From positions 1-22,869 of the IMG/VR virus record IMGVR_UViG_3300049482_000047: a stretch of DNA of 22,869 nucleotides; one strand, 5' to 3'. The position numbers and the translations under genes were made by a program. This DNA is from a virus. The notes under the pieces were generated by a model. It was not told the origin of the DNA, did not search any database, and was given only the letters and a program-made list of their open reading frames with translations. Below are positions 5,094 to 22,869 of the stretch, in pieces. Position 1 is the first letter of the stretch. Each line of letters begins with the position of its first letter.

Positions 5094-5860
5094 GCGCGAT
5101 GAGCACCGAGCTCCAGATGACACTGGACGATGCGGTGGCGGAGGTGCTCGGCACCCTTACCGGGCTCGACATCACGTACGAGCCGGAGTACGACCGGTAC
5201 CGCGCCATCACCCGGCAGCTGAACCGGGCCCTGCGGCACAACGCCCTCGACCAGGACTGGTCCTACTACAGCACCGTCGAGGACGTCGGTGTCATCGTCG
5301 GCGGCGAGCAGGAGTTCGCCATCGACCCGCAGAACCGGGTTCGCATTCTCGATGACGACTCCGTCCGACTCGTCGATGACACGGGCAAGCCTGTGCGCTG
5401 GGCGTACGTCCTGCCGCGCGACAGCCTGCACAAGTACGCCAGCCGCACGGGGCTGTGGTGCGCGATCGTCCGCAAGACAGTCATGTTCTCCCGTCCGCTG
5501 TTCACGTCCGAGGCGGGCCTGCATGTGGAGGTCCCGGTGATGAGGGAGCCCACCATCTTCCGGCTGCCGCCGGCCGACGAGGAGGTCGACGATGGCATCC
5601 GTCAGCAGCTGGTCGACTTCGACTATCCCGACCTGGTGATCGCCCGTGCCGCGTACCTGTACGCGCAGGCGGACCCGGTGATGCAGCCAAGGGCGCAGAC
5701 GCTGGAGCAGAGCTACAAGAACCTCATGTACCAGCTGATCGAGCGGGACACCGACCACACCGACTCCGCGTACCTGAACGAGATCATCGTCCCGGTGCAG
5801 TCGAGCGTGCGCAGCGAGTTCTCCCGCGTGCACCTGCATCCGCATGCCTGGGAGGGCTGA
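5090..5860 (+). CDS. Tail tubular A-like head-tail adaptor
   Basis: A 256-residue protein. Its N-terminal part reads as helical adaptor: DRYRAITRQLNRALRHNAL followed by DQDWSYYS, the pattern of a helix with Leu-Asn-x-Ala repeats followed by a Trp that is typical of podovirus adaptor proteins such as T7 gp11. A beta-rich middle region (residues about 65-155) is followed by a C-terminal helical bundle with ARAAYLYAQADP and SYKNLMYQLIERD. The ATG at 5090 is chosen because it overlaps the upstream stop (ATGA) and has a GAGGAAG sequence upstream; the frame stays open further left, inside the previous gene. It is followed directly by the nozzle-like gene (TGATG overlap at 5858-5862), the standard tubular A then tubular B order. 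The role as a ring joining portal to nozzle is inferred from order and pattern. Confidence 0.65.
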   Translation: MSAMSTELQMTLDDAVAEVLGTLTGLDITYEPEYDRYRAITRQLNRALRHNALDQDWSYYSTVEDVGVIVGGEQEFAIDPQNRVRILDDDSVRLVDDTGKPVRWAYVLPRDSLHKYASRTGLWCAIVRKTVMFSRPLFTSEAGLHVEVPVMREPTIFRLPPADEEVDDGIRQQLVDFDYPDLVIARAAYLYAQADPVMQPRAQTLEQSYKNLMYQLIERDTDHTDSAYLNEIIVPVQSSVRSEFSRVHLHPHAWEG

Positions 5861-8800
5861 TGCCCCCGAGCAAGGCGGTCATCCCGGCGCCGATCGACAG
5901 GCCGCTGTCCCGTGCTTATCTACGGGGATTCACGGGGTGGTCCACAGCTTATCCACCGGGGCAGTCGGAGCCGACGAGCCTGCGGATCATGGAGAACGCG
6001 ATGGTCGACCGCAACGGGGCGCTCGCCGTCCGGCCAGGACTGCGGTACCTGTCGTACGAGGACTCCCCCGACATGGACCCGACGGACGACGCCTACCCCG
6101 GCCTCGCCTACTCCCTTCCCCTGGTCGGCGGGCAGGAGCCGTTCTACACCCTGAAGGGGGAGAAGGCGCTGCTGTTCGGGGTGCGTGAGATCGACGGCAC
6201 CGTCGGCTTCCGCGCGATCCTCATGACGGACCCGTTCCGTGTCGTGTTCGGGCTGGAGGATCCCGCGATCGGGTTCACCATTCCGCAGGGCACCGCGAAC
6301 ATGAACTTCTCCGAGGCCACCACCCATGTGGAGTACCTGCAGATCAACAACCGGATCATCGCCATGTCCGACGCAGGCGAGGACATCCGGGTGTTCTTCG
6401 TGGGCATGGAGAAGGTCGCCAAGCGCATGTCGAACGTGTCGGTGCCGGACTGGACGGACGCCGACAAGCTCACCGCGATCCAGCCGGACGCCGCCTGGGT
6501 CGCCACGCAGACCGTCACCGTCCGGACGAACGAGCTGCTGAACCCGTCGTTCGAGATCGGCACTTACCTGTGGACCCCGTCGGACACGACACGGCTGAGC
6601 CCCGGGACTCCCGCAGATCCCGTGAGCGGGACGCATGTGCTGCACGTCGAGTCGCGCCCGGCCCGCACCAACATGATCACCAGGCCGCTGCACGACCTCG
6701 CCACGCTGCCGGAGAACTCCATCATCAACGGCTGGTACCCGCTCGAGCAGTTCGGCCATGAGACCCGTGTCATCACCGACCACGGCTACCTGCGCATCTA
6801 CGACATGCATGTGGCGGAGGGCCCGTTCCTGGCGTACAGCGCGAAGGCCCACGAGAACGTGGTGCCCGGCCAGAAGTACCGCCTCGCGTTCGACTACACC
6901 ATCGGGCAGGACATCACCCCGCAGGCCCGGTTCACGTTCCACAGCGTGAACGGCGCGAAGATCGGCGACGATGTCGTGTTCGAGCTGCCCGAGGAGAACG
7001 GGCGCTGGGTCAGCGACGCCGTGCCGGCACCGTCCGGGACCGTCACCATCCGCGCGTGGGTCGGCGGCACCGGCCACGGCCCGGTCGTCACCTACGTCCG
7101 CATCAAGGACGTGGTGCTGTGCCAGGACGGGGAGCCCACCACCCTGCTCACCGGGGCCAGCGGCACCGACTGCCACTGGACGGGAGCCGTGAACCAGTCG
7201 GCGTCGGTGTACCACCCGGTGCAGACGGTGAAGGTCACCTCCGCCCGGGTCCCCGTACCGAAGCGGGCACTGTCCGGGTCGGCGTCGGTGCGCACGATGG
7301 GGCAGACGTTCACGATCGGCATGACGACCTTCAACAAGTACGGCAACGTCGTCGACATCCCCACCGCGGGGGCGTCCCCGGCGGCAGGGGCCTGGTTCCG
7401 GGCGCATGCAGGCTCCCCGATGGTCGGCGCGGGAGCCGTGTCCGCCGAGCTGTCGATCGAGATCCCCGGCGTCGGGTACGGCCAGTACATCGAGGTCGAT
7501 GCCGCCATGCTGGAGTCGAACACGTCGCTGCTCGGCACGTACTTCGACGGCTCGACGGCCGGCACCCCGATCACGGCGAACAACTGGATGGACCGGTTCT
7601 CCCCGCATGCCTCTCCGAGCAGGCAGCGCATCATGCCGGGCACGTCGATGCCGTCACCGGAGACGCCGACCGCGAACACTCTGATCGCCACCGGTGGTGC
7701 GGCCGCGAACGAGTTCAAGCTCGGCATGTTCTACACGTTCGAGAACGAGATCGGGGAGTCCGCCCCGTCCCGGGTGCTGGAGATCCGGATGTCTCGCGCG
7801 TGGTCGAACTGGCGCTGGGAGACGGCGAACGCCGCTGGCGAGCCCAGCGGGACTGCCACGGACGTGGCCGAGCTGTGCGCGGACCAGCTGGTGGTGCGCC
7901 TCCCGCAGGCCGTGTACGAGCAGGCCCTGTCCGAAGGAGCCGTGAAGTGGCACCTGTACGTGCTGGCCTGGTCGGACCAGGATCCCGTCCCCGTCGAGGG
8001 CGACAGGTTCACCACGACGTTCATGTACGACACGGAGCTGTCTGACACGCTGCCCTACTTCGAGGGCGGCATGGTGAAGCTGACCCCGAACCGGCGGATC
8101 GGCACCGTGTCGTTGCCGCTGCCGTCACTGTCGAACCGGGTCAACTACTCGACCCCGCCGAAGTCGCGCTCCGGCATGGTAGCCAGTGATCGGATGGTCC
8201 TGGTCGGTGACCCGACGGAGCTGGCCACCATCAAGTGGACGTCCAACGCCTTCGGCGAGTACACGAACTTCTCGGCGGCCGCCGGTGGCGGGGAGAAGAC
8301 CCTGACATCAGGGAACCTGAACCTTCCGGTGGCGGTCGTGCTGTGGCAGAACCCGCAGTCCGTCGACACCCTCACCATCCTGTGCCAGGGGGAGGACGGG
8401 TACTCCTCGGCGTACTACATGCAGCCGGCCACGGTGCAGGCGGCCAGCGGCGTGACCGCGATCATGGGGTTCGAGGAGACCACGAACACCCCCGGCACGC
8501 TGTCGCCGTACGCGGTCGAGGTGATGAACAACGGGATGTACCGCCCGACGATGATGGGCCTGCTGAAGTCGACGGCGCAGAACTACAACATCAACCACAA
8601 GATGTTCAGCGACAAGATCGCGAACATGTGGCGCGGGCTGCAGGCTCGGCAGTGGATGATGTCGGCCCAGCTCGACAACCGGTTCTACCTGCTGGTGAAC
8701 AATCCCAGAGGTGCAGCGCTCGAGGAGGGCTGCAAGGGGAACGAGATCTGGGTGCTGGACATCGGCGCGGAGAACGGCAACTGGTCCCGCCTGCTGATCC

Positions 8801-9399
8801 AGGCGGCGGCACTGCGCGAGTTCGACATCAGCGGCCACACCTACATGGGCGTCACCCGGCCGGAGGGCCTGTACTACCTCGACCCGGACTACCGTCGCGA
8901 TGACTACGTGACGGACATCCGGGAGGTGCGCAGCCGGCCGATCCCGTGGCGGATCATGACGAACACGCAGGGCGCCAACCGCGCGCATGACGCATGGGCC
9001 CATGTGCAGCAGGTCCAGATCACCCTCGGCGCGTTCCAGGGGAAGATGCGCTACGGGGTGATGGGTCTCGACCTGCACGGCAAGATGGTCGACGTGTCGA
9101 AGATCATGTCCGACGAGCGGCGGATCTTCGACACCGGCTATGAGTGGAATGTCCACGACAAGCTGAGAATCGGCAGGGACCTGATGGAGTGGGAGTTCTA
9201 TGCCGAGTCGCTGGACGGCGAGGACGGCACGGGGGTCCTGGCTGTCGTCCAGTACCGGTACACCCCGGTGTCGGTGAACGTCGGCACGGAGTTCGGCAGC
9301 GTGGAGACCTTCGAGTACGGGAGCAATGTCGCGAACGGCCCGGACGGGTACGCGGCGAACGGCATCCCGCTGACGTACATGGACTACCGCAGGAACTAG
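5860..9399 (+). CDS. Tail tubular B-like nozzle protein with jelly-roll insertions
   Basis: A 1179-residue protein, larger than T7 gp12 (about 790). The N-terminus has LRIMENAMVDRNGALAVRPG near residues 43-62, the kind of opening seen in podovirus nozzle proteins, followed by beta-rich propeller-like sequence. Near residue 225 the style changes: LLNPSFEIGTYLWTP is followed by HVLHVESRP and PGQKYRLAFDYTIGQD, a CBM4/9-like jelly-roll pattern. A second unit ends around ESNTSLLGTYFDGSTAG (about 548-564), a motif shared with minor tail proteins. The nozzle pattern resumes near 760-800 (SGMVASDRMVLVGDP, then FGEYTNFSAA). The ATG at 5860 overlaps the upstream stop. The stop TAG forms part of the first CTAGTCACC repeat. 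The protein probably forms the tail nozzle, with the insertion exposed for glycan binding (inference). Confidence 0.7.
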   Translation: MPPSKAVIPAPIDRPLSRAYLRGFTGWSTAYPPGQSEPTSLRIMENAMVDRNGALAVRPGLRYLSYEDSPDMDPTDDAYPGLAYSLPLVGGQEPFYTLKGEKALLFGVREIDGTVGFRAILMTDPFRVVFGLEDPAIGFTIPQGTANMNFSEATTHVEYLQINNRIIAMSDAGEDIRVFFVGMEKVAKRMSNVSVPDWTDADKLTAIQPDAAWVATQTVTVRTNELLNPSFEIGTYLWTPSDTTRLSPGTPADPVSGTHVLHVESRPARTNMITRPLHDLATLPENSIINGWYPLEQFGHETRVITDHGYLRIYDMHVAEGPFLAYSAKAHENVVPGQKYRLAFDYTIGQDITPQARFTFHSVNGAKIGDDVVFELPEENGRWVSDAVPAPSGTVTIRAWVGGTGHGPVVTYVRIKDVVLCQDGEPTTLLTGASGTDCHWTGAVNQSASVYHPVQTVKVTSARVPVPKRALSGSASVRTMGQTFTIGMTTFNKYGNVVDIPTAGASPAAGAWFRAHAGSPMVGAGAVSAELSIEIPGVGYGQYIEVDAAMLESNTSLLGTYFDGSTAGTPITANNWMDRFSPHASPSRQRIMPGTSMPSPETPTANTLIATGGAAANEFKLGMFYTFENEIGESAPSRVLEIRMSRAWSNWRWETANAAGEPSGTATDVAELCADQLVVRLPQAVYEQALSEGAVKWHLYVLAWSDQDPVPVEGDRFTTTFMYDTELSDTLPYFEGGMVKLTPNRRIGTVSLPLPSLSNRVNYSTPPKSRSGMVASDRMVLVGDPTELATIKWTSNAFGEYTNFSAAAGGGEKTLTSGNLNLPVAVVLWQNPQSVDTLTILCQGEDGYSSAYYMQPATVQAASGVTAIMGFEETTNTPGTLSPYAVEVMNNGMYRPTMMGLLKSTAQNYNINHKMFSDKIANMWRGLQARQWMMSAQLDNRFYLLVNNPRGAALEEGCKGNEIWVLDIGAENGNWSRLLIQAAALREFDISGHTYMGVTRPEGLYYLDPDYRRDDYVTDIREVRSRPIPWRIMTNTQGANRAHDAWAHVQQVQITLGAFQGKMRYGVMGLDLHGKMVDVSKIMSDERRIFDTGYEWNVHDKLRIGRDLMEWEFYAESLDGEDGTGVLAVVQYRYTPVSVNVGTEFGSVETFEYGSNVANGPDGYAANGIPLTYMDYRRN

Positions 9400-9565
9400 T
9401 CACCTAGTCACCCCCTAGTCACCCCTAGGTGACCAGGAAATGTCGTTCATTCCCAGAGAGTTTTTCTGTTCTAGTCACCTAGTCACCTCTTTTCTATCTT
9501 TATATAAATAAGTAGAAGAGAAATAAAAGGGAGTAGGGGGTGACTAGGGGTGACTAGGTGACTAG
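9396..9565. repeat. CTAGTCACC repeat array forming a large inverted repeat
   Basis: The 9-mer CTAGTCACC occurs at 9396-9404, 9404-9412, 9415-9423, 9471-9479 and 9479-9487. Its reverse complement GGTGACTAG occurs at 9539-9547, 9549-9557 and 9557-9565, and a related GGTGACC lies at 9428-9434. The left block 9396-9425 and right block 9536-9565 are reverse complements apart from the length of one C-run, giving arms of about 30 bp around ~110 bp. The inner pair 9471-9487 can also pair with 9549-9565, so alternative stems are possible. The first copy starts inside the final codons of the nozzle-like gene. The array separates two plus-strand structural blocks. It could be a terminator/regulator, a multi-site operator, an origin or a packaging site; the sequence alone does not choose. 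Confidence 0.9.
9488..9535. other. AT-rich core between the repeat arms
   Basis: A short stretch made almost only of A and T, including TTTATATAAATAA near 9498-9510, in an otherwise strongly GC-rich genome. It lies at the centre of the inverted repeat and is itself loosely symmetric (TCTA on the left, TAGA on the right around the TATATA). No open reading frame or SD is seen. Such a segment could ease DNA melting or carry a promoter; neither can be shown here. Confidence 0.6.
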
Positions 9566-9597
9566 GAATGGCGCACCGCCCGGCGTACCCAGGCATG

Positions 9598-9624
9598 CTT
9601 ACAGAGTGGTGTACGTGCTAATGT
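9598..9624 (+). promoter_or_regulatory. Weak candidate promoter for the second structural block
   Basis: CTTACA at 9598-9603 matches TTGACA at four of six positions. TGCTAATGT at 9616-9624 fits an extended -10 (TGnTAnnnT) after a short 15-nt spacer. It lies about 37 bp upstream of the ATG at 9661 and after the repeat array, a sensible place for a promoter. The match is modest and the spacer short, so this is only a candidate. Confidence 0.3.
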
Positions 9625-9660
9625 CCCGCACAGTGAAGCCGTAACCCACCTAGGAGCGAC

Positions 9661-10341
9661 ATGAGTTCCAAGCATAAGGCTGAGCTCTACAACTTGTACA
9701 AGGCCACTGGAATCCCACTGGAGAAGCAGTTCCGCAACTACACAGAGCAGGAGCTGATCGACCTCCTGACCGCCGCCGGCGTCGACATCGAGGCCAGTCT
9801 CCAGCCCGCGCCAGCCGAGGAGCCCCTGCCGCCGCTCCGCCTGCCGGATCCCGAGGAGATGCCCGGGCAGCGCCTCAACACCAACGCCGATGACGAGGTC
9901 ATCCGGGTGGACGAGGACGGCCGCGAGTGGCTGCAGGAGGAGGTGCGGAAACCCGCCTATCCCAAGCCTCGCGGCCGCCGTGTCCTGAAGTACCTCGAGA
10001 CCGGCACGGAGAAGCAGACCGTCCAGAACGGGGAGTACGTCGAGACCTTCGAGGTCGCCGGCTCCCGCGAGGGAGTCCCCTCCGAGGTGAAGATCACCCT
10101 CCCCTCGTACCAGGTGGGCATCTACCGGGACCCCCGCTTCCCGTTCAAGATCCACTGCTACAACGGCCGCGAGGGCTTCGACATGACCGATGTCGAGGCC
10201 TTCTACGGCGCCGCCGAGCTCGTGCCCGAGAAGGTCAAGAGGGTCTACATCGAGAACGTCCTGTGCTACGACATCCGAACGGTGGTGCGCGCCATCTCCG
10301 ACGAGCACCGCCACCTTCAGCTCACCGGAGGACTCAAGTGA
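9661..10341 (+). CDS. Unrecognised protein, first gene of the second structural block
   Basis: A 226-residue protein with no family I can name. Residues 1-45 form two short helices (LYNLYKATGI, then YTEQELIDLLTAAGVD), loosely like a SAP/HeH helix-extension-helix DNA-binding motif. A Pro-rich linker runs from about 50 to 80. The C-terminal half is a compact mixed fold with SYQVGIYRDPRFPFKIHCYN and KRVYIENVLCYDIRTVVRAI. There is no TM segment. The start has AGGAG (9652-9656) only 4 nt upstream of the ATG. It opens the operon running through the scaffold-like and terminase genes, so a structural or head-assembly role is likely. The next gene overlaps it as GTGA. Confidence 0.5.
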   Translation: MSSKHKAELYNLYKATGIPLEKQFRNYTEQELIDLLTAAGVDIEASLQPAPAEEPLPPLRLPDPEEMPGQRLNTNADDEVIRVDEDGREWLQEEVRKPAYPKPRGRRVLKYLETGTEKQTVQNGEYVETFEVAGSREGVPSEVKITLPSYQVGIYRDPRFPFKIHCYNGREGFDMTDVEAFYGAAELVPEKVKRVYIENVLCYDIRTVVRAISDEHRHLQLTGGLK

Positions 10342-10919
10342 CCGACCAGCCCCTCATCGACCAGTCCATCATGGACACCACCGTCGCCGACCTCGGCGAG
10401 GTGACCCCGCAGTTCCACACCATCCTCGAGGTGTGGGCGAAGGTCCTCGAGCCCGCGCGCAAGGAGGCCGATGCCCATGTCACGCCCCAATGGGCGAGCC
10501 GGATCTGCGCGAAGTACCAGCAGATGCAGTTCGCCGACATGCCGGAGTTCCGCGACCGCTACTTCGACAAGATCGCCCAGCTCGAGGCGATCCTCCTCGA
10601 TGAGATCTCCCAGGACGACGAGGCCCTGAACCAGACCACGCCGGAGGAGGATGCCCAGCACAACTCCGAGCACTACCTCGCGGTGCTGACCAGCTGGCAG
10701 ATCGCCGTGCTGGGCTGGGAGCTGGACTGGGCATGCAGCGAGCCGACGGCGCCAGCCGAGCTGGCTGCCATCTCCGAGGTCCACTCGATGTTCTTCGGCG
10801 ACGTGGGACTGACAGCGCTGCTGGACCAGATCCAGTTCGAGTTCACGGACATGCACAGGGATGCCCTGGCGCTGGCCCTGCAGTCCTACAAGGACGGCCG
10901 GGAGGGTGACGGTGAGTGA
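10338..10919 (+). CDS. Unrecognised acidic helical protein
   Basis: A 193-residue acidic protein, mostly helical, rich in Asp, Glu, Ala and Leu, with two short Trp-containing segments (VWAKVLEPARK near 26-36 and SWQIAVLGWELDW). No catalytic or metal-binding motif is seen. The start is the GTG at 10338, overlapping the previous stop (GTGA), with GGAGG at 10327-10331 six bases upstream. Upstream in-frame ATGs lie inside the previous gene and are rejected. It sits between the 226-residue protein and the scaffold-like protein and probably acts in head assembly or as a small virion component, by context only. Confidence 0.5.
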   Translation: MTDQPLIDQSIMDTTVADLGEVTPQFHTILEVWAKVLEPARKEADAHVTPQWASRICAKYQQMQFADMPEFRDRYFDKIAQLEAILLDEISQDDEALNQTTPEEDAQHNSEHYLAVLTSWQIAVLGWELDWACSEPTAPAELAAISEVHSMFFGDVGLTALLDQIQFEFTDMHRDALALALQSYKDGREGDGE

Positions 10920-11925
10920 GCCAGCCGCGGATGACCGCCCTGGCCTCACGCTCCCGTCTCAGGGCGATGTGGCATTCGGTGCTCTCATGGACACTCTGGT
11001 GGCTGAGACGGCCTCAGAGGGCGCTCCAGGCGCGACGGCAGAGACGGGCGCTGGAACGGGCGCAGGAGCTGCGACAGGGGCTCCTGGAGGCACTGAGGCC
11101 CCTGGCGGCAGCCCTGCAGCGGCAGGACAGCCTGCGCCAGGCACAGCACCAGCAGCAGATGGAGCAGGGACTCCTCCTGCTGGACCTGCTGCAGGAGGTG
11201 CTGGGCAGCCTCCAGCCGACGGCAAGCCAGCAGCTGCTGCCACGGGTGGAGCAGACGCGGCCACTGTCCTCCCGCAGATCGGGGAGCTGAGCACCAAGTT
11301 CGAGGAGAGCGTCACCAAGGCCTACCAGCAGGAGTCGTTCGAGCAGGTCCGCAAGGACTACGGCAACTACTTCGAGGCGCTCGAGAAGCACCCCCGGCTG
11401 CTCGTCGGCGCCCAGGTGCCGGCCATCGGCAAGGAGGGCATGGAGACCCTGAAGTCCTCCGAGGATGCCAAGGAGTGGCAGGAGGCCGTGCGGACCCTGC
11501 TCGCGCAAGAGATCCGGAGCAAGGCCGAGTCGAAGATGGAGGAGTCGAAGGCCTTCATCGACACCGTCCACGCCAGCATCGACCTGTTCAAGAACAACCC
11601 TGACCTGATCCCTGGCACCACCGGGTTCAACCGGCCCCTGGCCGACGCCTTCGCCACGATGGCCACCCCGTACGAGATCCGAGGCGACGACAAGAAGCTG
11701 GTCGGCTACTCGATCCCCGTGCAGCCGATCATCGAGCAGCTGCGCAAGCAGCTGTCCACGGCCCCTGCTCCTGCGGCGGCTCCGCCCACCGTCCTCCCGG
11801 TGGCAACCCCGCCACCGGCGGATCCGCCGCAGGCCGGGATCACCTCGAAGGCAGGTGACAGCTCGCAGAAGGAGGACTTCTCGACGCTGTTCGGCACAAT
11901 AGGACTGCCCAATCTCCAAATCTGA
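10912..11925 (+). CDS. Scaffold-like head assembly protein
   Basis: A 337-residue protein. Residues about 35-115 are low complexity (Ala, Gly, Pro, Thr). They are followed by a charged helical region from LSTKFEESVTKAYQQESFEQ to about residue 235, including AESKMEESKAFIDTVHASID. A second Pro/Ala-rich linker (about 280-310) leads to a short conserved-looking tail ending FSTLFGTIGLPNLQI. A disordered N-terminus, a helical middle and a short C-terminal motif fit an internal scaffolding protein, which usually binds the capsid protein through its tail (family knowledge). The GTG at 10912 has GGGAGG at 10900-10905, 6 nt upstream, and overlaps the previous stop within GTGAGTGA. No Ser-His-Asp protease motif was noticed. 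The role is an inference from composition and from the terminase downstream. Confidence 0.55.
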   Translation: MSEPAADDRPGLTLPSQGDVAFGALMDTLVAETASEGAPGATAETGAGTGAGAATGAPGGTEAPGGSPAAAGQPAPGTAPAADGAGTPPAGPAAGGAGQPPADGKPAAAATGGADAATVLPQIGELSTKFEESVTKAYQQESFEQVRKDYGNYFEALEKHPRLLVGAQVPAIGKEGMETLKSSEDAKEWQEAVRTLLAQEIRSKAESKMEESKAFIDTVHASIDLFKNNPDLIPGTTGFNRPLADAFATMATPYEIRGDDKKLVGYSIPVQPIIEQLRKQLSTAPAPAAAPPTVLPVATPPPADPPQAGITSKAGDSSQKEDFSTLFGTIGLPNLQI

Positions 11926-12436: not shown

Positions 12437-13894
12437 ATGCCGCAGTTCCCGGTTCACTACCAGCCGCGGCCATACCAGGCATCCCTGCACCGGATGTTCC
12501 GCACGCACCGCTACTCGATCGCGGTGCTGCCGAGGCAGACCGGCAAGGATGTCGCCGCGTCGATGGAGCAGTGCGAGGCGAGATTGAAGACCCCCAAGAC
12601 CACGGGGGTTTACATCTCCCTGTCCAACCCAATGATCAGGGACATTCTCTGGGACAAGACGTACATCGACCCGCGCACCGAGCAGTACATCATGGGGCTG
12701 AAGGACAACGTCCCCCCGGAACTGGTGGAGTGGAAGGACACCGTGATGGTGGGGAACTTCACCAACAAGAGCCGCCTCAAGCTGCAGGGCTACTTCCAGT
12801 CAGGGCAGGACAAGGCCGGCGTCGGCACGTCCTTCCAGGACTACACGATCACCGAACTAGCCCTCTTCACCAGAGAAGATCCGATCCCCCGGATCATGCC
12901 CATCCTCGAGAACCGGGCCGAGGACAAGCGCCTCATGGTGGTGTCCACCCCACGAGGGAAGCGACGCAACCCGCTGTGGCAGCTGATGCAGTCCATGGAG
13001 GGCAATCCCGAGGCGAAGACGATCATCCTCGGCATCGACGACGTCAACCAGATCATGCGCAAGGCAGGGCTCTCCGATGTCCTGACCGAACCGGAGCTCG
13101 AGCGGATCCGCGACACGTACATGCGACGGTTCGGGAACGAGCGCATGTTCGAGCAGGAGTACCACTGCTCGTTCGAGGAGATGGACGCGGCAGCCGTGTA
13201 CGGCGAGGCGTACATGAAGCTCGTCAACGACAACCGCGTCCTCGACTTCAACCTCGACCAGGCCCATCCCGTGTACGTCGCCTTCGACATCGGCGCCAGT
13301 GGCCTGCACTCCGATGCCACCAGCTGGATCACGTTCCAGTGGGTGAACGGGCGACTGTGGATCTACGACTGTGGCGAGGGCCACGGCAAGGCGCTGCCCG
13401 AGTACGTCGACGAGCTGCAGCCGAAGCACTACTTCAACAGGATCGGCAAGCTGATCCTGCCGTGGGACGGGGACCACCACGAGAAGGCGGTGAACACCAC
13501 GCCGGCCGACATGCTGCGGCAGCGGTTCCCCAACGTCGCGGTGCTGGCGAAATCCAACAAGGTGTGGAAGGTGCCGGGCTCGCGGCAGGGCGACTACGGC
13601 CTGATCACCGACATCCAGCAGACCCGGATGCAGCTGTACAACACGATCATCCACGAGACGAACTGCCAGTGGCTGCTCGAATGCCTGGAGAACTACAAGT
13701 ACGAGTACTCCACCCGGCTGCAGCAGTGGACACAGCAGCCGCTGCACGACCGGCACAGCCACATGATGGATGCCCTGCGGTACGCAGTGCAGTCCACGAA
13801 GGAGCTGGACTTCTTCGGCTCCAGCTTCTATGACGAGCACACTGGCGGAGCGTCCGTCAGCTACGAGGAGAACTGGGCAGGGGTATGGCGCTGA
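12437..13894 (+). CDS. terL: Terminase large subunit (ATPase and nuclease)
   Basis: A 485-residue packaging motor protein. N-terminal ATPase: a Walker A-type loop LPRQTGKD at 31-38, Walker B YTITELALF with Glu140, and a coupling motif STPRGKRRN at about 170-178. C-terminal RNase H-like nuclease: VAFDIG with Asp284, LPWDGDH with Asp344/Asp346, and HDRHSHMMDALRY with Asp445. This order and spacing match large terminases, which pump DNA through the portal and cut concatemers. GAGGAGG (12424-12430) lies 6 nt upstream of the ATG. The length is normal for the family. The following gene starts inside its last 10 bases. No portal gene is adjacent, which is unusual. Confidence 0.9.
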   Translation: MPQFPVHYQPRPYQASLHRMFRTHRYSIAVLPRQTGKDVAASMEQCEARLKTPKTTGVYISLSNPMIRDILWDKTYIDPRTEQYIMGLKDNVPPELVEWKDTVMVGNFTNKSRLKLQGYFQSGQDKAGVGTSFQDYTITELALFTREDPIPRIMPILENRAEDKRLMVVSTPRGKRRNPLWQLMQSMEGNPEAKTIILGIDDVNQIMRKAGLSDVLTEPELERIRDTYMRRFGNERMFEQEYHCSFEEMDAAAVYGEAYMKLVNDNRVLDFNLDQAHPVYVAFDIGASGLHSDATSWITFQWVNGRLWIYDCGEGHGKALPEYVDELQPKHYFNRIGKLILPWDGDHHEKAVNTTPADMLRQRFPNVAVLAKSNKVWKVPGSRQGDYGLITDIQQTRMQLYNTIIHETNCQWLLECLENYKYEYSTRLQQWTQQPLHDRHSHMMDALRYAVQSTKELDFFGSSFYDEHTGGASVSYEENWAGVWR

Positions 13895-14467: not shown

Positions 14468-14760
14468 CGGCGCCACATCCGCTTCCACCTCTTCGCCGCC
14501 GGCCGCTTGCACACAGGGCAGCGGCAGCGCCTGGGCTTGACCATGTGGTCGTACGCCTCGGAGTCGGGTCGTGTCTCGGGAAGCTGCCGCTGGTCCTCTC
14601 CAAGGAGATCCAGCGGCAGTACCCAGTCACCCCCCCATCTCACAGCCCGGGGATCATCCGGCTTGCGCACAATTTTTTTCCGCTGATCCGCAGGGACCGG
14701 TGCGTACCGCGTGCCATTCGAGTAGAGCCGGGTGCCGTCCTCGAGGACCCTCACGGTCAC
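14434..14760 (-). CDS. Unrecognised basic protein with Cys motif
   Basis: A 108-residue protein that I do not recognise. The N-terminus has a small beta-like segment (VRVLEDGTRLYSNGTRYAPV). The C-terminus is strongly basic with a cysteine cluster, CRCPVCKRP, then KRWKRMWRRQMRR, suggesting nucleic-acid or metal binding. The GTG at 14760 is preferred over the ATG at 14808 because it forms a GTGA overlap with the stop of the upstream gene, the pattern used repeatedly in this genome. The 3' end overlaps the converging plus-strand gene by 34 bases. It is the last minus-strand gene of the window and lies beyond a strong terminator. Confidence 0.5.
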   Translation of the reverse strand: MTVRVLEDGTRLYSNGTRYAPVPADQRKKIVRKPDDPRAVRWGGDWVLPLDLLGEDQRQLPETRPDSEAYDHMVKPRRCRCPVCKRPAAKRWKRMWRRQMRRDSSAMS

Positions 14761-15314
14761 GGGTGCAGCACTCCCTCCACGTACTCGGCGTACAGCGTCA
14801 GGGTGCACGGGCGATGCCGCTTGATGTAGTACCCCTTCTTCACCTTGTACGCCTTGCCGACCTTGCGGCCCATGATCCAGGTCGTGTACGGCTTGCCGAA
14901 GTAGTAGGCGAGGACCTGGTTGATCTTGCGCAGGTCGGATCGCCAGTTCTGCTTGCCGCTCTCGAACTTCTCACTCGACGCCATCAGCTCCTTGACCTCG
15001 AGCCCGGTCGCCCACTCGAAGACCATGACCGCGGTGACGCGGTGCTCGTGGTCGGGCGACAGGTTGCGCAGGAACTTGCGGACCTCGCGCTCCCACTCGA
15101 CGAGGCCCGGGTTCTCCTTCACCAGGAACTTCTCCTTGGTGAACGGCATTAGCCCCCTCTCCTCATCGGGCAGGGTGATTTGGTCGACGCGGCCTGACGG
15201 CTGCGAAGCGGATGCCGTCGAAGGCATCCGCTTCCGATCGGCCTCCTCCTTGTTGAATCTCTTCTTCAATTCCTCTTCAGCTTCGGTCAGGTACGACTTG
15301 TCAAGGAGGCTCAT
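14757..15314 (-). CDS. Unrecognised protein encoded just past the operon terminator
   Basis: A 185-residue protein with no recognised family. The first 60 residues are charged and probably helical (LTEAEEELKKRFNKEEADRK) then Ser/Ala-rich. The remainder is a mixed fold with EWEREVRKFLRNLSPDHEHR, then QNWRSDLRKINQVLAYYFG and a basic, Tyr-rich C-terminus (KVGKAYKVKKGYYIKRHR). The ATG at 15314 gives the most gene-like start, though no clear SD precedes it. It begins 17 bases after the U-tract of the terminator at 15331-15376. It must therefore be made by read-through, from a promoter overlapping the terminator, or from a nearly leaderless message. The C-terminal basic patch suggests nucleic-acid contact; this is a guess. 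Confidence 0.55.
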   Translation of the reverse strand: MSLLDKSYLTEAEEELKKRFNKEEADRKRMPSTASASQPSGRVDQITLPDEERGLMPFTKEKFLVKENPGLVEWEREVRKFLRNLSPDHEHRVTAVMVFEWATGLEVKELMASSEKFESGKQNWRSDLRKINQVLAYYFGKPYTTWIMGRKVGKAYKVKKGYYIKRHRPCTLTLYAEYVEGVLHP

Positions 15315-15499: not shown

Positions 15500-15776
15500 G
15501 GGTCGACACCTCCCCGCCGCATGCGGCGTAGCCGGCGATGTCGACCCAGTGATCCTCCTGTCCCGGGCTCGTTGCCAGCCGGGACACCTTCATCAGGATC
15601 ATCATGGCCGCAACGTCGTACGTGTGGAGCTCGATGTCGTGCATGCCCTTCGCCCGCAGGTACGCCTCCCAGTACTCGGCGATGGTCCGGAAGTTGTCCT
15701 CCGGATCCCCGTGCGTGGCATTGCGATCGTGCGACACGTAGCCCTTCGCCGTGTCCAGGATCTCCGGCCGGTTCAC
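15480..15776 (-). CDS. DUF6378-like phage protein
   Basis: A 98-residue protein with the pattern I associate with DUF6378 (function unknown, common in phages): a short N-terminal helix, then RNATHGDPEDNFRTIAEYW, and a helical region with YDVAAMMILMKVSRL and HWVDIAGYAACG. The start is the GTG at 15776, overlapping the Prim-Pol stop as GTGA; the frame stays open upstream only as a shadow of the Prim-Pol gene. It is co-transcribed with replication genes. The helical EYW...D...KVSRL layout is reminiscent of all-alpha NTP pyrophosphohydrolase-like folds, but I do not see a complete set of their metal ligands, so I leave the function open. Confidence 0.65.
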   Translation of the reverse strand: MNRPEILDTAKGYVSHDRNATHGDPEDNFRTIAEYWEAYLRAKGMHDIELHTYDVAAMMILMKVSRLATSPGQEDHWVDIAGYAACGGEVSTRVANRG

Positions 15777-16627
15777 GGGATGACCGCGGACGACGGGGCG
15801 TACCTGCTGATGTTGAGCACCAGCTTGTCCGTCTCGTCCGACGCGAGCCCGAGCTGCATCGCCCGGTCCCGCACCAGGGTCTCCCAGTTCTCCACCTCTG
15901 CCAGGAACAGCTGGCTGCCGATGGCGAACAGCGTGTTGTTGCGTCGACCCGCCGGGATCGGCTTGGCCAGGTCCTCGATCAGTGCGTCGTGCATGAGCAG
16001 TACCTCCTCCATGTCCCCACTGTCGAGGACCTTCACGATGTTGGCGACCTGGGCGGCAGCCTTCTGCTGCCGGCCGCGCAACATCGTCTTGATGTGATCC
16101 GGCAGCTCGGTGAGCTGACGGCTGTTCCATCTCTGCGACGGGTAGTGGTACACGCATCCCGTCGCTCGGAAGTCGACCCCTTGCTGCAGCCCGATGCGAT
16201 CGCCGAACGGGGCGAAGCCGAAGTCATCGCTCCACTCGTCGTCGCTCACCAGGTAGAACAGGTGGTATCCGTTGCCGGACTTGCTGGTCTCGGCCAGCGT
16301 GTAGGGCAGCATGCCCAGCTTGCCGACACCGGTGAAGCCCCCGTTCTTCCCGTCGATGTCGATGCACACCAGGCGCATCGACCTCATGATGTAGGCGAAC
16401 GCCCACTTCTCCTGGTGATAGCCCTGGAGGACCGCCTGCATCGTGCGCATGAAGCGACCCTTGCCGTACTTCTCGATGAAGTCCGGCATACCCCAGCCCT
16501 TGTCCGTCGTGCCGTCACGCCAGACCCGGGTGAGGGCAAGACCCTTCGGGCCTGCGTTGTCGACGAACTCCTTCGGGAGATCGTCGTCGACCACGTACTC
16601 GTCAGTCATCCACCACGGCTGTGGCAT
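15773..16627 (-). CDS. Prim-Pol type primase (AEP family)
   Basis: A 284-residue protein with the catalytic layout of the archaeo-eukaryotic primase fold: RLVCIDIDGKNG with Asp90/Asp92 (motif I, DxD), SGNGYHLFYLV with Ser117 to His122 (motif II, SxH-like) and VDFRATGCVYHYPSQ near 151-165 (motif III, Asp152). It would synthesise primers for the phage polymerase. Two ATGs compete: 16633 abuts the GAGGAGG at 16634-16640, while 16627 has the usual 6-nt spacing, so 16627 is chosen. The start overlaps the end of the D5/SF3 helicase gene by 26 bases. In many phages Prim-Pol and D5 helicase are one polypeptide; here they are two adjacent, overlapping genes. Confidence 0.8.
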   Translation of the reverse strand: MPQPWWMTDEYVVDDDLPKEFVDNAGPKGLALTRVWRDGTTDKGWGMPDFIEKYGKGRFMRTMQAVLQGYHQEKWAFAYIMRSMRLVCIDIDGKNGGFTGVGKLGMLPYTLAETSKSGNGYHLFYLVSDDEWSDDFGFAPFGDRIGLQQGVDFRATGCVYHYPSQRWNSRQLTELPDHIKTMLRGRQQKAAAQVANIVKVLDSGDMEEVLLMHDALIEDLAKPIPAGRRNNTLFAIGSQLFLAEVENWETLVRDRAMQLGLASDETDKLVLNISRYAPSSAVIP

Positions 16628-17996
16628 GTGCATCCTCCTCTCTCAGTGAGCCGATCACGATCATCGTGTCCTCCGTCAGGCCGGAGATGACACGCTTCTT
16701 GCGGGAGCTCACGATCGAGGCATCCCACACGGACTTGCGCTCGGTGTCGAGCACAGGCCTGAACAGGTTGAGCAGCGTCTGCGCATCCCACGGAGTGGGA
16801 TCACCGCATGCCTTGCGCCACGACTGGAACTGCGAGGCCATGTCATGGAACAGCATGCCGAGCAGGAACTCCTCGACCGGCAGGGTCTCCGTCTCGTCCA
16901 GGTGGACGAGGAACTGCAGGGCCAGCGAGTTGTCCACCGCGTGCTCGATCTGCGCCAGCCTCGACGCCTGCGACGGGGACAGCATCACCGCCACCTCCGA
17001 CTGCAGCACGTAGTGGTCGACCAGCAGGGACAGCAGCGCACCGAGCATCCGCTCGGAGTGCATGTGAGTCCAGAAGTCCTGGTCATCCGGGTACTTGTTC
17101 GGGAACACGAACCGGACCAGCCTCGCCTGCAGGGCAGACGACTTGTCCCGGGAGCGTGGCTCCTGGTTCAAGCCCTCGATGAACAGGGCGTTGGTCTGCA
17201 CCGTGGTGGAGGCGTTGGCATACAGCTTGCGGATGCCGATCGCCTCGCCCGTGATGAGCGACTTCTCCCTGCCCGAGTCCTTCAGGAACTCGGCCGGTCC
17301 GTCGAACACGACGTTGAGCAGCTTGTTGTTCAGGTCGAACATCGCCTTGTCCGCCTCGCTGATCTGCTGACGGGTGATGCTCGAGCAGTTGTCCCGCCCG
17401 AACAGGACCTGCAGCATGTTCATCAGCAGCGACTTGCCGTTGCGACCATTGCCGATCAGCAGCACGTACTTGCCCGCCGACCAGTGCGGTGCCAGCGCTG
17501 TCGCCAGGTGGCGCAGCAATGACGTGACGATCTCCTCGTCCCCACCGACCCAGTCGGTGATGGTGGCCTTGAGTGCGGCCTTGTCGTCCGGGTCGTCGTT
17601 GATCTCCCACCGGATGGTGTTCGGGATGAACGTGCCATCCGGATCCTGCAGCGTGCCGTCCTCCTTCAGGACCTTCAGGCCCTGAGCGGTCTTGACCAGC
17701 AGCCACGGCTTCACGTCGAAGACCCGGATGGCCGACTGCTCGACCATGAACTGGAACGACTGCTGCTGCCGAGGATCCTTGAACATCGTGTCGAACTGCT
17801 GCAGCGCCTTGACCTGGAGCATGTCGTCGCTGAGCGGAACCCACGTCGTGCGCTCCATGTCAGGGACCACGTCCGCATCCGTGTCGATGTAGTCGACCGG
17901 TGCGTACAGCTTCTTGTTGTAGAAGACGTACTGGTAGCTGGTCGCCAGGGTCTCAGCGTCGACAGCAAGGACTGCTGTCGTCTTCGGTGTTGCCAT
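16602..17996 (-). CDS. D5/SF3-type replicative helicase
   Basis: A 464-residue protein. An N-terminal region of about 150 residues resembles the D5 N-terminal domain. The AAA+ core follows: Walker A GNGRNGKS (about 182-189), Walker B LLNVVFDGPAEF (about 226-237), a sensor-1/motif C segment NALFIEGLNQEPR (about 269-281) and a likely arginine finger in RLVRFVFPN (292-300). This matches phage/plasmid primase-associated SF3 helicases that unwind the fork as a hexamer. The ATG at 17996 is preceded by AAGGAGG about 6 nt upstream. It is followed by the overlapping Prim-Pol gene, its expected partner. The length matches the helicase part of P4/D5-type proteins without the primase half. Confidence 0.85.
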   Translation of the reverse strand: MATPKTTAVLAVDAETLATSYQYVFYNKKLYAPVDYIDTDADVVPDMERTTWVPLSDDMLQVKALQQFDTMFKDPRQQQSFQFMVEQSAIRVFDVKPWLLVKTAQGLKVLKEDGTLQDPDGTFIPNTIRWEINDDPDDKAALKATITDWVGGDEEIVTSLLRHLATALAPHWSAGKYVLLIGNGRNGKSLLMNMLQVLFGRDNCSSITRQQISEADKAMFDLNNKLLNVVFDGPAEFLKDSGREKSLITGEAIGIRKLYANASTTVQTNALFIEGLNQEPRSRDKSSALQARLVRFVFPNKYPDDQDFWTHMHSERMLGALLSLLVDHYVLQSEVAVMLSPSQASRLAQIEHAVDNSLALQFLVHLDETETLPVEEFLLGMLFHDMASQFQSWRKACGDPTPWDAQTLLNLFRPVLDTERKSVWDASIVSSRKKRVISGLTEDTMIVIGSLREEDAHATAVVDD

Positions 17997-22699: not shown

Positions 22700-22743
22700 T
22701 TGCCCCTCCTAGGGTCACGAAAATTTTCTGGTGAAACAGAGAG

Positions 22744-22772
22744 GGGGCAGGCCGTGGTAAACAGCCTGCCCC
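22744..22772 (-). terminator. Hairpin upstream of the nuclease gene
   Basis: GGGGCAGGC (22744-22752) pairs with GCCTGCCCC (22764-22772) with an 11-base loop. It lies between the stop of the zinc-knuckle gene and the nuclease start. On the minus strand it is followed by CTCTCTGTTTC, a weak U-rich stretch. It may be a partial terminator or an RNA-processing element. Confidence 0.55.
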
Positions 22773-22783
22773 TCCCGTACTAG

Positions 22784-22869
22784 TCAGCGCCCGTACAACA
22801 GGCGCCTCTCTGCCTGCCTGTCTCGATGACAGGCTCGGCACTGTGTGCCACTGAGAATGTTCTCCTTCA
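22784..22869 (-). CDS. C-terminal end of a Cys-knuckle (HNH-like) protein, partial
   Basis: A frame open to the window edge ends at the TGA at 22784-22786 and reads KENILSGTQCRACHRDRQAE then RRLLYGR. The CxxC followed by many Arg residues resembles the terminal zinc knuckle of phage HNH or endonuclease VII-like proteins, but the catalytic part lies outside the window. Only 27 codons are visible, so the family call is weak. The frame fits the operon and ends just before the hairpin at 22744-22772. Confidence 0.5.
   Translation of the reverse strand, partial: KENILSGTQCRACHRDRQAERRLLYGR

What the first reader, a model, noticed from the sequence alone, without database searches (positions are those of the whole stretch)
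9396..9565. Nine-base repeat array built into a 30-bp inverted repeat around an AT-rich core
Five copies of CTAGTCACC on one side face three copies of its complement on the other, with inner and outer arms able to pair in alternative ways, in the only real intergenic gap of the window. CTAG is rare elsewhere here, so nine CTAG sites within 170 bp stand out. The first copy begins in the stop codon of the nozzle-like gene. This looks like a dedicated protein-binding or structural element (operator, origin, packaging site or terminator switch) and not a simple intrinsic terminator.
Basis: partly seen in the sequence, partly recalled or inferred. Interest (0 to 1): 0.75.

Follow-up and report, generated by a model that had tools for sequence, protein, structure and literature searches.

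The report
Paired, origin-like repeat array in phages
A repeat-rich, easily melted stretch of DNA next to the late genes of this phage is one of two matching copies that its relatives carry, and it most likely acts as a replication origin (or replication-fork barrier) recognised by a phage protein.

Summary
In detail: eight exact CTAGTCACC copies (five forward, three reverse) plus one degenerate copy lie at 9396-9565, around a 55-bp core overlapping the least stable 50-mer of the contig. It is a conserved feature of giant-gene podoviruses related to Microbacterium phage DoTi and Arthrobacter phage MissAmericana: 35 of 36 in-clade rows of a terminase tree have such an array upstream of the packaging operon. 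The unit changes between relatives (CTAGTCACC, CTGGTCACC, TGTAGWCA, GCAGTCA, TGTGACA). Eleven near-complete relatives carry two arrays: this late one and one in the large early noncoding gap; both use the same majority unit, although it switched about six times among them. Cultured relatives have only the early array. The module encodes a PrimPol, an SF3 helicase modelled like SaPI5 Rep primase-helicase (Z 29), and a winged-helix protein. Two iteron sets around a melting site is the plan of PICI/SaPI origins; an early and a late copy is the layout of SPP1 oriL/oriR. Best reading: a replication-initiator array, late partner of a pair. Function is inferred; binding and replication are untested. 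It works like, but is not filed as, a PICI or SPP1 origin.

The parts
9396..9423 (+). Outer left units: three forward CTAGTCACC (9396, 9404, 9415); the first overlaps the nozzle stop codon
9428..9436 (-). Degenerate reverse unit (CTGGTCACC) closing the outer left hairpin
   Evidence: same F-F-F-R layout in relatives
9471..9487 (+). Inner left pair of tandem forward units, 8-bp period
9486..9540 (.). AT-rich core (33% GC) with a pyrimidine run, TATATAAATAA and a purine run; the least stable 50-mer of the contig is 9479-9528 (dG -52.5, mean -77.5, z 6.2)
9539..9565 (-). Three reverse units (9539, 9549, 9557)
9619..9624 (+). Possible -10 element (within TGCTAATGT) of the packaging operon; a TATAAT-like sequence at this place is present in relatives lacking the array. 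Read by eye; the consensus scan did not call it
   Evidence: sequences; negative
5455..9399 (+). Nozzle protein gene upstream
   Evidence: homologue annotated 'nozzle protein' in MissAmericana
9661..10341 (+). Conserved hypothetical gene, first of the packaging operon; the array lies about 100-700 bp upstream of its homologue in array-bearing relatives
12437..13894 (+). Terminase large subunit
14757..15314 (-). Conserved winged-helix protein ('MA1'), candidate array-binding protein
15773..16633 (-). PrimPol (primase-polymerase)
   Evidence: PF09250, just below cut-off; above cut-off in the MissAmericana homologue
16602..17996 (-). SF3 helicase (DUF5906), fold of SaPI5 Rep primase-helicase; main candidate initiator

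Best explanation
The array is a replication-initiator binding site: two sets of iterons in inverted orientation flanking a DNA-unwinding core, one of a matched pair per genome. SHOWN: the architecture, its conservation, unit drift, matching units in the two arrays of a genome, the low stability of the core, and a PrimPol/SF3-helicase/winged-helix replication module in the same phage. INFERRED: a phage-encoded initiator (SF3 helicase and/or the winged-helix protein at 14757-15314) binds the units on both sides, melts the core and loads the helicase. The universal copy in the early noncoding gap would be the primary origin. The late copy studied here would be a second origin or, as proposed for SPP1 oriR, a tight initiator-DNA complex that stalls forks and triggers the switch to concatemer synthesis for headful packaging.
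For: (1) Array at the same junction throughout the clade; one gain and one loss explain its presence. (2) Eleven near-complete genomes have two arrays, 20-25 kb apart on the circular map, with the same majority unit in both in all 11 (T-type 5, A-type 5, GCAG 1), though the unit needs about six switches among them on the terminase tree. (3) Cultured relatives keep one array, always in the early noncoding gap, with other units (CGTTAC, CGGTTC[AG]C). (4) The core is the contig's least stable 50-mer; other J/N cores are among the seven or so least stable loci of their genomes. (5) The SF3 model matches SaPI5 primase-helicase (Foldseek E 2e-17; VIA Z 29.0, rmsd 4.1 over 380 residues). [quoted passage not shown] (6) SPP1 has two origins, each direct repeats plus an AT-rich DUE, oriR in the late region (PMC6316719; PMC3485210). 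(7) The unit is rarer than expected outside the arrays (24 vs 43.6). (8) SF3 and MA1 diverge more than expected between genomes with different unit classes, the ORF9661 control does not.
Against: No binding, replication-start or read-coverage data. Relatives without the late array exist (MissAmericana, DoTi, KingKamren, L059), so it is dispensable. No SF3 column tracks the T/A switch in the unit, and the covariation test ignores tree structure. GC skew at four-fold sites does not change consistently at the junction. The array is not next to the initiator gene as in SaPIs. Cores of several relatives are only moderately AT-rich (46-56% GC).
Confidence: 0.55

Rival explanations
1. Operator array: a phage regulator binds the tandem units at two operon starts (early leftward operon and packaging operon) to time transcription.
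For: Both arrays lie near operon starts. A TATAAT-like element lies just downstream of the late array site, also in relatives lacking the array. 8-bp tandem half-sites are typical of ribbon-helix-helix regulators (general knowledge), and DoTi has an RHH gene.
Against: The unit is depleted elsewhere, the promoter-like element persists without the array, and the RHH gene is not conserved (3 of 15). The conserved low-stability core and symmetrical 2-core-2 minimum are not needed for an operator.
Confidence: 0.17
2. Transcription boundary: the long hairpin terminates or insulates between the structural and packaging operons.
For: Very stable RNA fold; position directly at the nozzle stop codon; in L018/L026 the core itself is a terminator-like hairpin with T tracts (sequences).
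Against: No terminator-like site in the window's gap. Tandem direct units and identical units in a second, distant array are unexplained by a hairpin. In several relatives the nozzle gene ends 1 kb or more before the array, so the array follows the downstream operon.
Confidence: 0.12
3. Packaging (pac) recognition site for a small terminase subunit.
For: 2.8 kb upstream of the terminase gene; relatives are circularly permuted (PMC7302621). The winged-helix gene lies near the terminase gene and could be a small subunit.
Against: Two arrays per genome, and the universal one is 20-25 kb away in the early region; cultured relatives package without the late array.
Confidence: 0.08
4. Recombination or mobile-element ends (inverted arms as recombinase or transposase sites).
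For: Inverted repeats; J and N cores are alike within some genomes (G002, G003, G004, G011), so sequence exchange between the two sites is plausible.
Against: No recombinase matched among the conserved replication-module genes; no cargo seen; fixed position over a whole clade.
Confidence: 0.05

Closest known systems
PICI/SaPI replication origins with Pri-Rep initiator
   Same: Two sets of short iterons flanking an AT-rich melting site; initiator is a D5/SF3-type helicase (this phage's SF3 model best matches SaPI5 primase-helicase) with an associated PrimPol; unit differs between elements.
   Different: Array is not immediately 3' of the helicase gene; two copies per genome in relatives; PrimPol and SF3 are separate genes; carrier is a lytic-type podovirus, not a satellite; iterons in opposite orientation on the two sides with extra outer hairpins.
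SPP1 oriL/oriR with G38P
   Same: [quoted passage not shown] circularly permuted genome; the phage also encodes RuvC-like, exonuclease and SSB-like genes.
   Different: No G38P/G39P/DnaB-type helicase found; SF3 helicase instead; the late copy is absent from some relatives.
P4 ori1/crr with alpha protein
   Same: Two iteron-bearing sites and a primase-SF3 helicase initiator (from my own knowledge; PMC6092414 names only the alpha protein and its ori site).
   Different: P4's two sites lie close together on a small satellite genome and are both needed (recalled, not tested).
Stoperators/SAS motifs of actinobacteriophages
   Same: Short repeated phage motifs in intergenic gaps (PMC7302621).
   Different: Those are single dispersed sites at many genes; here nearly all copies sit in two arrays around a core.

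Membership tests
[quoted passage not shown]
   definition PMC6092414
PICI/SaPI-type origin | SF3/D5-type Rep (or Pri-Rep) initiator encoded by the same element | tested here: met
   (by fold; its role as initiator is not shown)
PICI/SaPI-type origin | Origin immediately 3' of the rep gene | tested here: not met
   Array 9396-9565 is about 7 kb from the SF3 gene 16602-17996
PICI/SaPI-type origin | Rep binds the iterons; ori plus rep replicate autonomously | not testable with these tools
   needs binding and plasmid maintenance assays
SPP1-type paired origins | Two arrays with shared repeats plus AT-rich region, one early and one late | tested here: met
   Met in 11 relatives; in the window only the late one is on the contig
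SPP1-type paired origins | G38P-family initiator with G39P loader and DnaB-type helicase | tested here: inconclusive
   No such family matched among conserved genes; helicase is SF3
Intrinsic terminator | GC-rich short hairpin followed by a T run | tested here: not met
   none in 9350-9700
Dispersed operator/stoperator | Sites scattered at many promoters or genes | tested here: not met
   24 sites outside arrays against 43.6 expected over 12 genomes
pac site | Packaging series start at or near the site | not testable with these tools
   no virion reads

The most novel reading that the evidence does not exclude
A lytic tailed-phage lineage replicates from a matched pair of PICI-like origins whose iterons change in concert across 20-25 kb, kept alike by exchange between the sites and tracked by an SF3 initiator and/or a detached winged-helix origin-binding protein. 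The late copy is an acquired fork barrier that switches replication to concatemers.
Probability: 0.3. Interest if true: 0.75.

Novelty: new variant of a known kind. Interest (0 to 1): 0.6.

Why it matters
It would give a proposed origin for the giant-gene (cluster EK/EM/Burro-like) actinobacterial podoviruses, for which I found no published origin. [quoted passage not shown] The natural series of units, nearly homogeneous within a genome, is a ready-made set for studying how initiators and iterons co-evolve, and genomes with and without the late copy allow a direct test of what a second origin does.

Tried and rejected
GC-skew switch as origin evidence: raw skew flips at the junction in the window, but four-fold-site skew is inconsistent across relatives and also drops in DoTi, which lacks the array; dropped. 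Specificity residues in SF3, PrimPol, SF2, MA1 or terminase that track the T/A switch: no usable signal (18 SF2 columns separate, but only with many residue types and few genomes); T and A units also mix within some arrays. Inverted orientation of N relative to J as a rule: seen from shared cores in G002-G004, but G011 is in direct orientation. Motif GGTCAGA beside the arrays: a partner motif in a sub-clade (G010, G012-G015, G021), absent in the window. Rfam: only sub-threshold plant miRNA matches, a sign of hairpin shape. Exact 17-mer hits in other viral contigs (L006, L007, L010 share one sequence; L009, L012 other arrays; L008 next to a parA-like gene) are not at this junction. Foldseek gave no match with E<=0.001 for MA1; its top VIA row, the C-terminal part of PriRep1 in a dsDNA complex (7PDS, Z 5.1), is tied with other winged helices.

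Full report
OBSERVATION. The window holds eight exact CTAGTCACC copies at 9396-9565, five forward and three reverse, plus a degenerate reverse copy at 9428. No 9-mer exceeds four copies in such a span in 100 dinucleotide shuffles. Nine of the window's 15 CTAG sites lie in it. The arms form a 19-bp perfect, about 30-bp gapped inverted repeat, with an alternative inner arm. The first unit supplies the nozzle stop codon.

SOURCE. The window is a 22,869-bp IMG/VR viral record. Its terminase matches Microbacterium phage DoTi, genus Burrovirus, and ORF 9661 matches Arthrobacter phage MissAmericana. These resemble the circularly permuted podoviruses with a gene of more than 13 kb described in PMC7302621. 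That paper reports repeats for other clusters; the passages found name none for these.

CONSERVATION AT THE JUNCTION. Relatives were fetched through ORF 9661 and the terminase. The gap upstream of the ORF 9661 homologue carries the same architecture with other units: CTGGTCACC, TGTAGTCA, TGTAGACA, GCAGTCA, TGTGACA, TGTGTACA and TGTAGTCG. Where the nozzle gene ends further upstream, the array stays near the start of the ORF 9661 homologue. On a 44-row terminase tree the array-less rows need two changes: the base of the clade and one internal loss (L059). So it is an acquired (or once-lost), conserved, but dispensable part.

A SECOND ARRAY. An almost unsupervised scan (7-mers at least five times in both orientations within 260 bp, GC under 58%) of near-complete genomes found two arrays per genome with one spurious extra. 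The second, 'N', lies in the noncoding region between the leftward replication operon and the giant gene. Cultured relatives have N only: DoTi AGGTAACG, MissAmericana CTCGTTAC, KingKamren CGGTTC[AG]C. In the window N would lie beyond the contig end. For G003 the late array ('J') has only four units and was read from the sequence.

CONCERTED CHANGE. In all 11 genomes with both arrays the majority unit is the same in J and N. By my parsimony count on the tree, about six switches occurred among these 11. Cores are also shared within a genome in G002, G003, G004 (inverted) and G011 (direct); permutation P for J/N core matching is 0.0016 on eight genomes. Either one trans-acting protein holds both arrays to one unit, or the sites exchange sequence, or both.

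ANATOMY. The minimal form is two forward units, a core of about 45-70 bp, and two reverse units (L018, L026). Fuller forms add outer units that close small hairpins on either side. A sub-clade adds GGTCAGA elements. The window's core is the least stable 50-mer of the contig (z 6.2), and the cores of relatives are among the few least stable loci. The unit is under-represented elsewhere in these genomes.

CANDIDATE BINDERS. The conserved early module includes PrimPol, a DUF5906 SF3 helicase, an SF2 helicase, Pol I, a PD-(D/E)XK nuclease, a RuvC-like protein, an SSB-like protein and a conserved 180-residue protein MA1. The window's SF3 protein was modelled at pLDDT 86. Its closest solved fold is the SaPI5 primase-helicase, Z 29.0. 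MA1 models as a winged helix in residues 66-180; its fold matches are weak and tied. Both SF3 and MA1 diverge more than expected between unit classes, a suggestive result that does not correct for the tree.

MECHANISM. PICI origins always have two iteron sets around an AT-rich region (PMC6092414), and SaPI Rep recognises them with its C-terminal domain (PMC7581432). [quoted passage not shown] PMC3485210). The present element combines the first architecture with the second layout. I therefore propose a phage initiator array, with N as main origin and J as second origin or fork barrier. The origin step is inferred with moderate confidence and the fork-barrier role with low confidence.

RIVALS. 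Operator, transcription boundary, pac site and recombination site are weighed in their own sections. None is excluded experimentally. The terminator reading fails its sequence test here, and a dispersed-operator reading is disfavoured.

FILING. One PICI feature (origin directly 3' of rep) was tested and not met, so I do not file it as a PICI origin. The claim is that it works like one, in an SPP1-like pair.

Noticed in passing
L038:3565-17718 (relative G004): The 4,717-residue giant protein contains LGGDHDGDTMVP, reminiscent of the DFDGD motif of multisubunit-type RNA polymerases; read by eye only.
   Followed up: no
window 10861-11925: Weak sub-cutoff Pfam match to a virion RNA polymerase domain (vRNAP_dom, E 0.0078) in a packaging-operon gene.
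   Followed up: no
L008:3438-3454 and flanks: CTAGTCAC tandem repeats next to a parA-like gene (read by eye) in another viral contig, possibly a partition site or operator.
   Followed up: partly
L012:1206-1246 and L009:6225: Longer tandem CTAGTCACC arrays in other viral contigs.
   Followed up: no
relatives G010, G012-G015, G021: GGTCAGA elements between outer and inner units, often inverted on the two sides, a possible second binding site in the arrays.
   Followed up: partly
L081:8532-9089: The winged-helix protein of G011, the genome with the deviant GCAGTCA unit, is unusually divergent (38% to MissAmericana) while its other replication proteins are not.
   Followed up: partly
L059:2312-2415: A close relative lacks the late array entirely and keeps only a gap of about 100 bp.
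   Followed up: yes
window 22700-22869: Start of another noncoding stretch at the contig end with one CTAGTCAGC (unit with one mismatch) and an inverted repeat GGGGGCAGGC...GCCTGCCCC (sequence).
   Followed up: no
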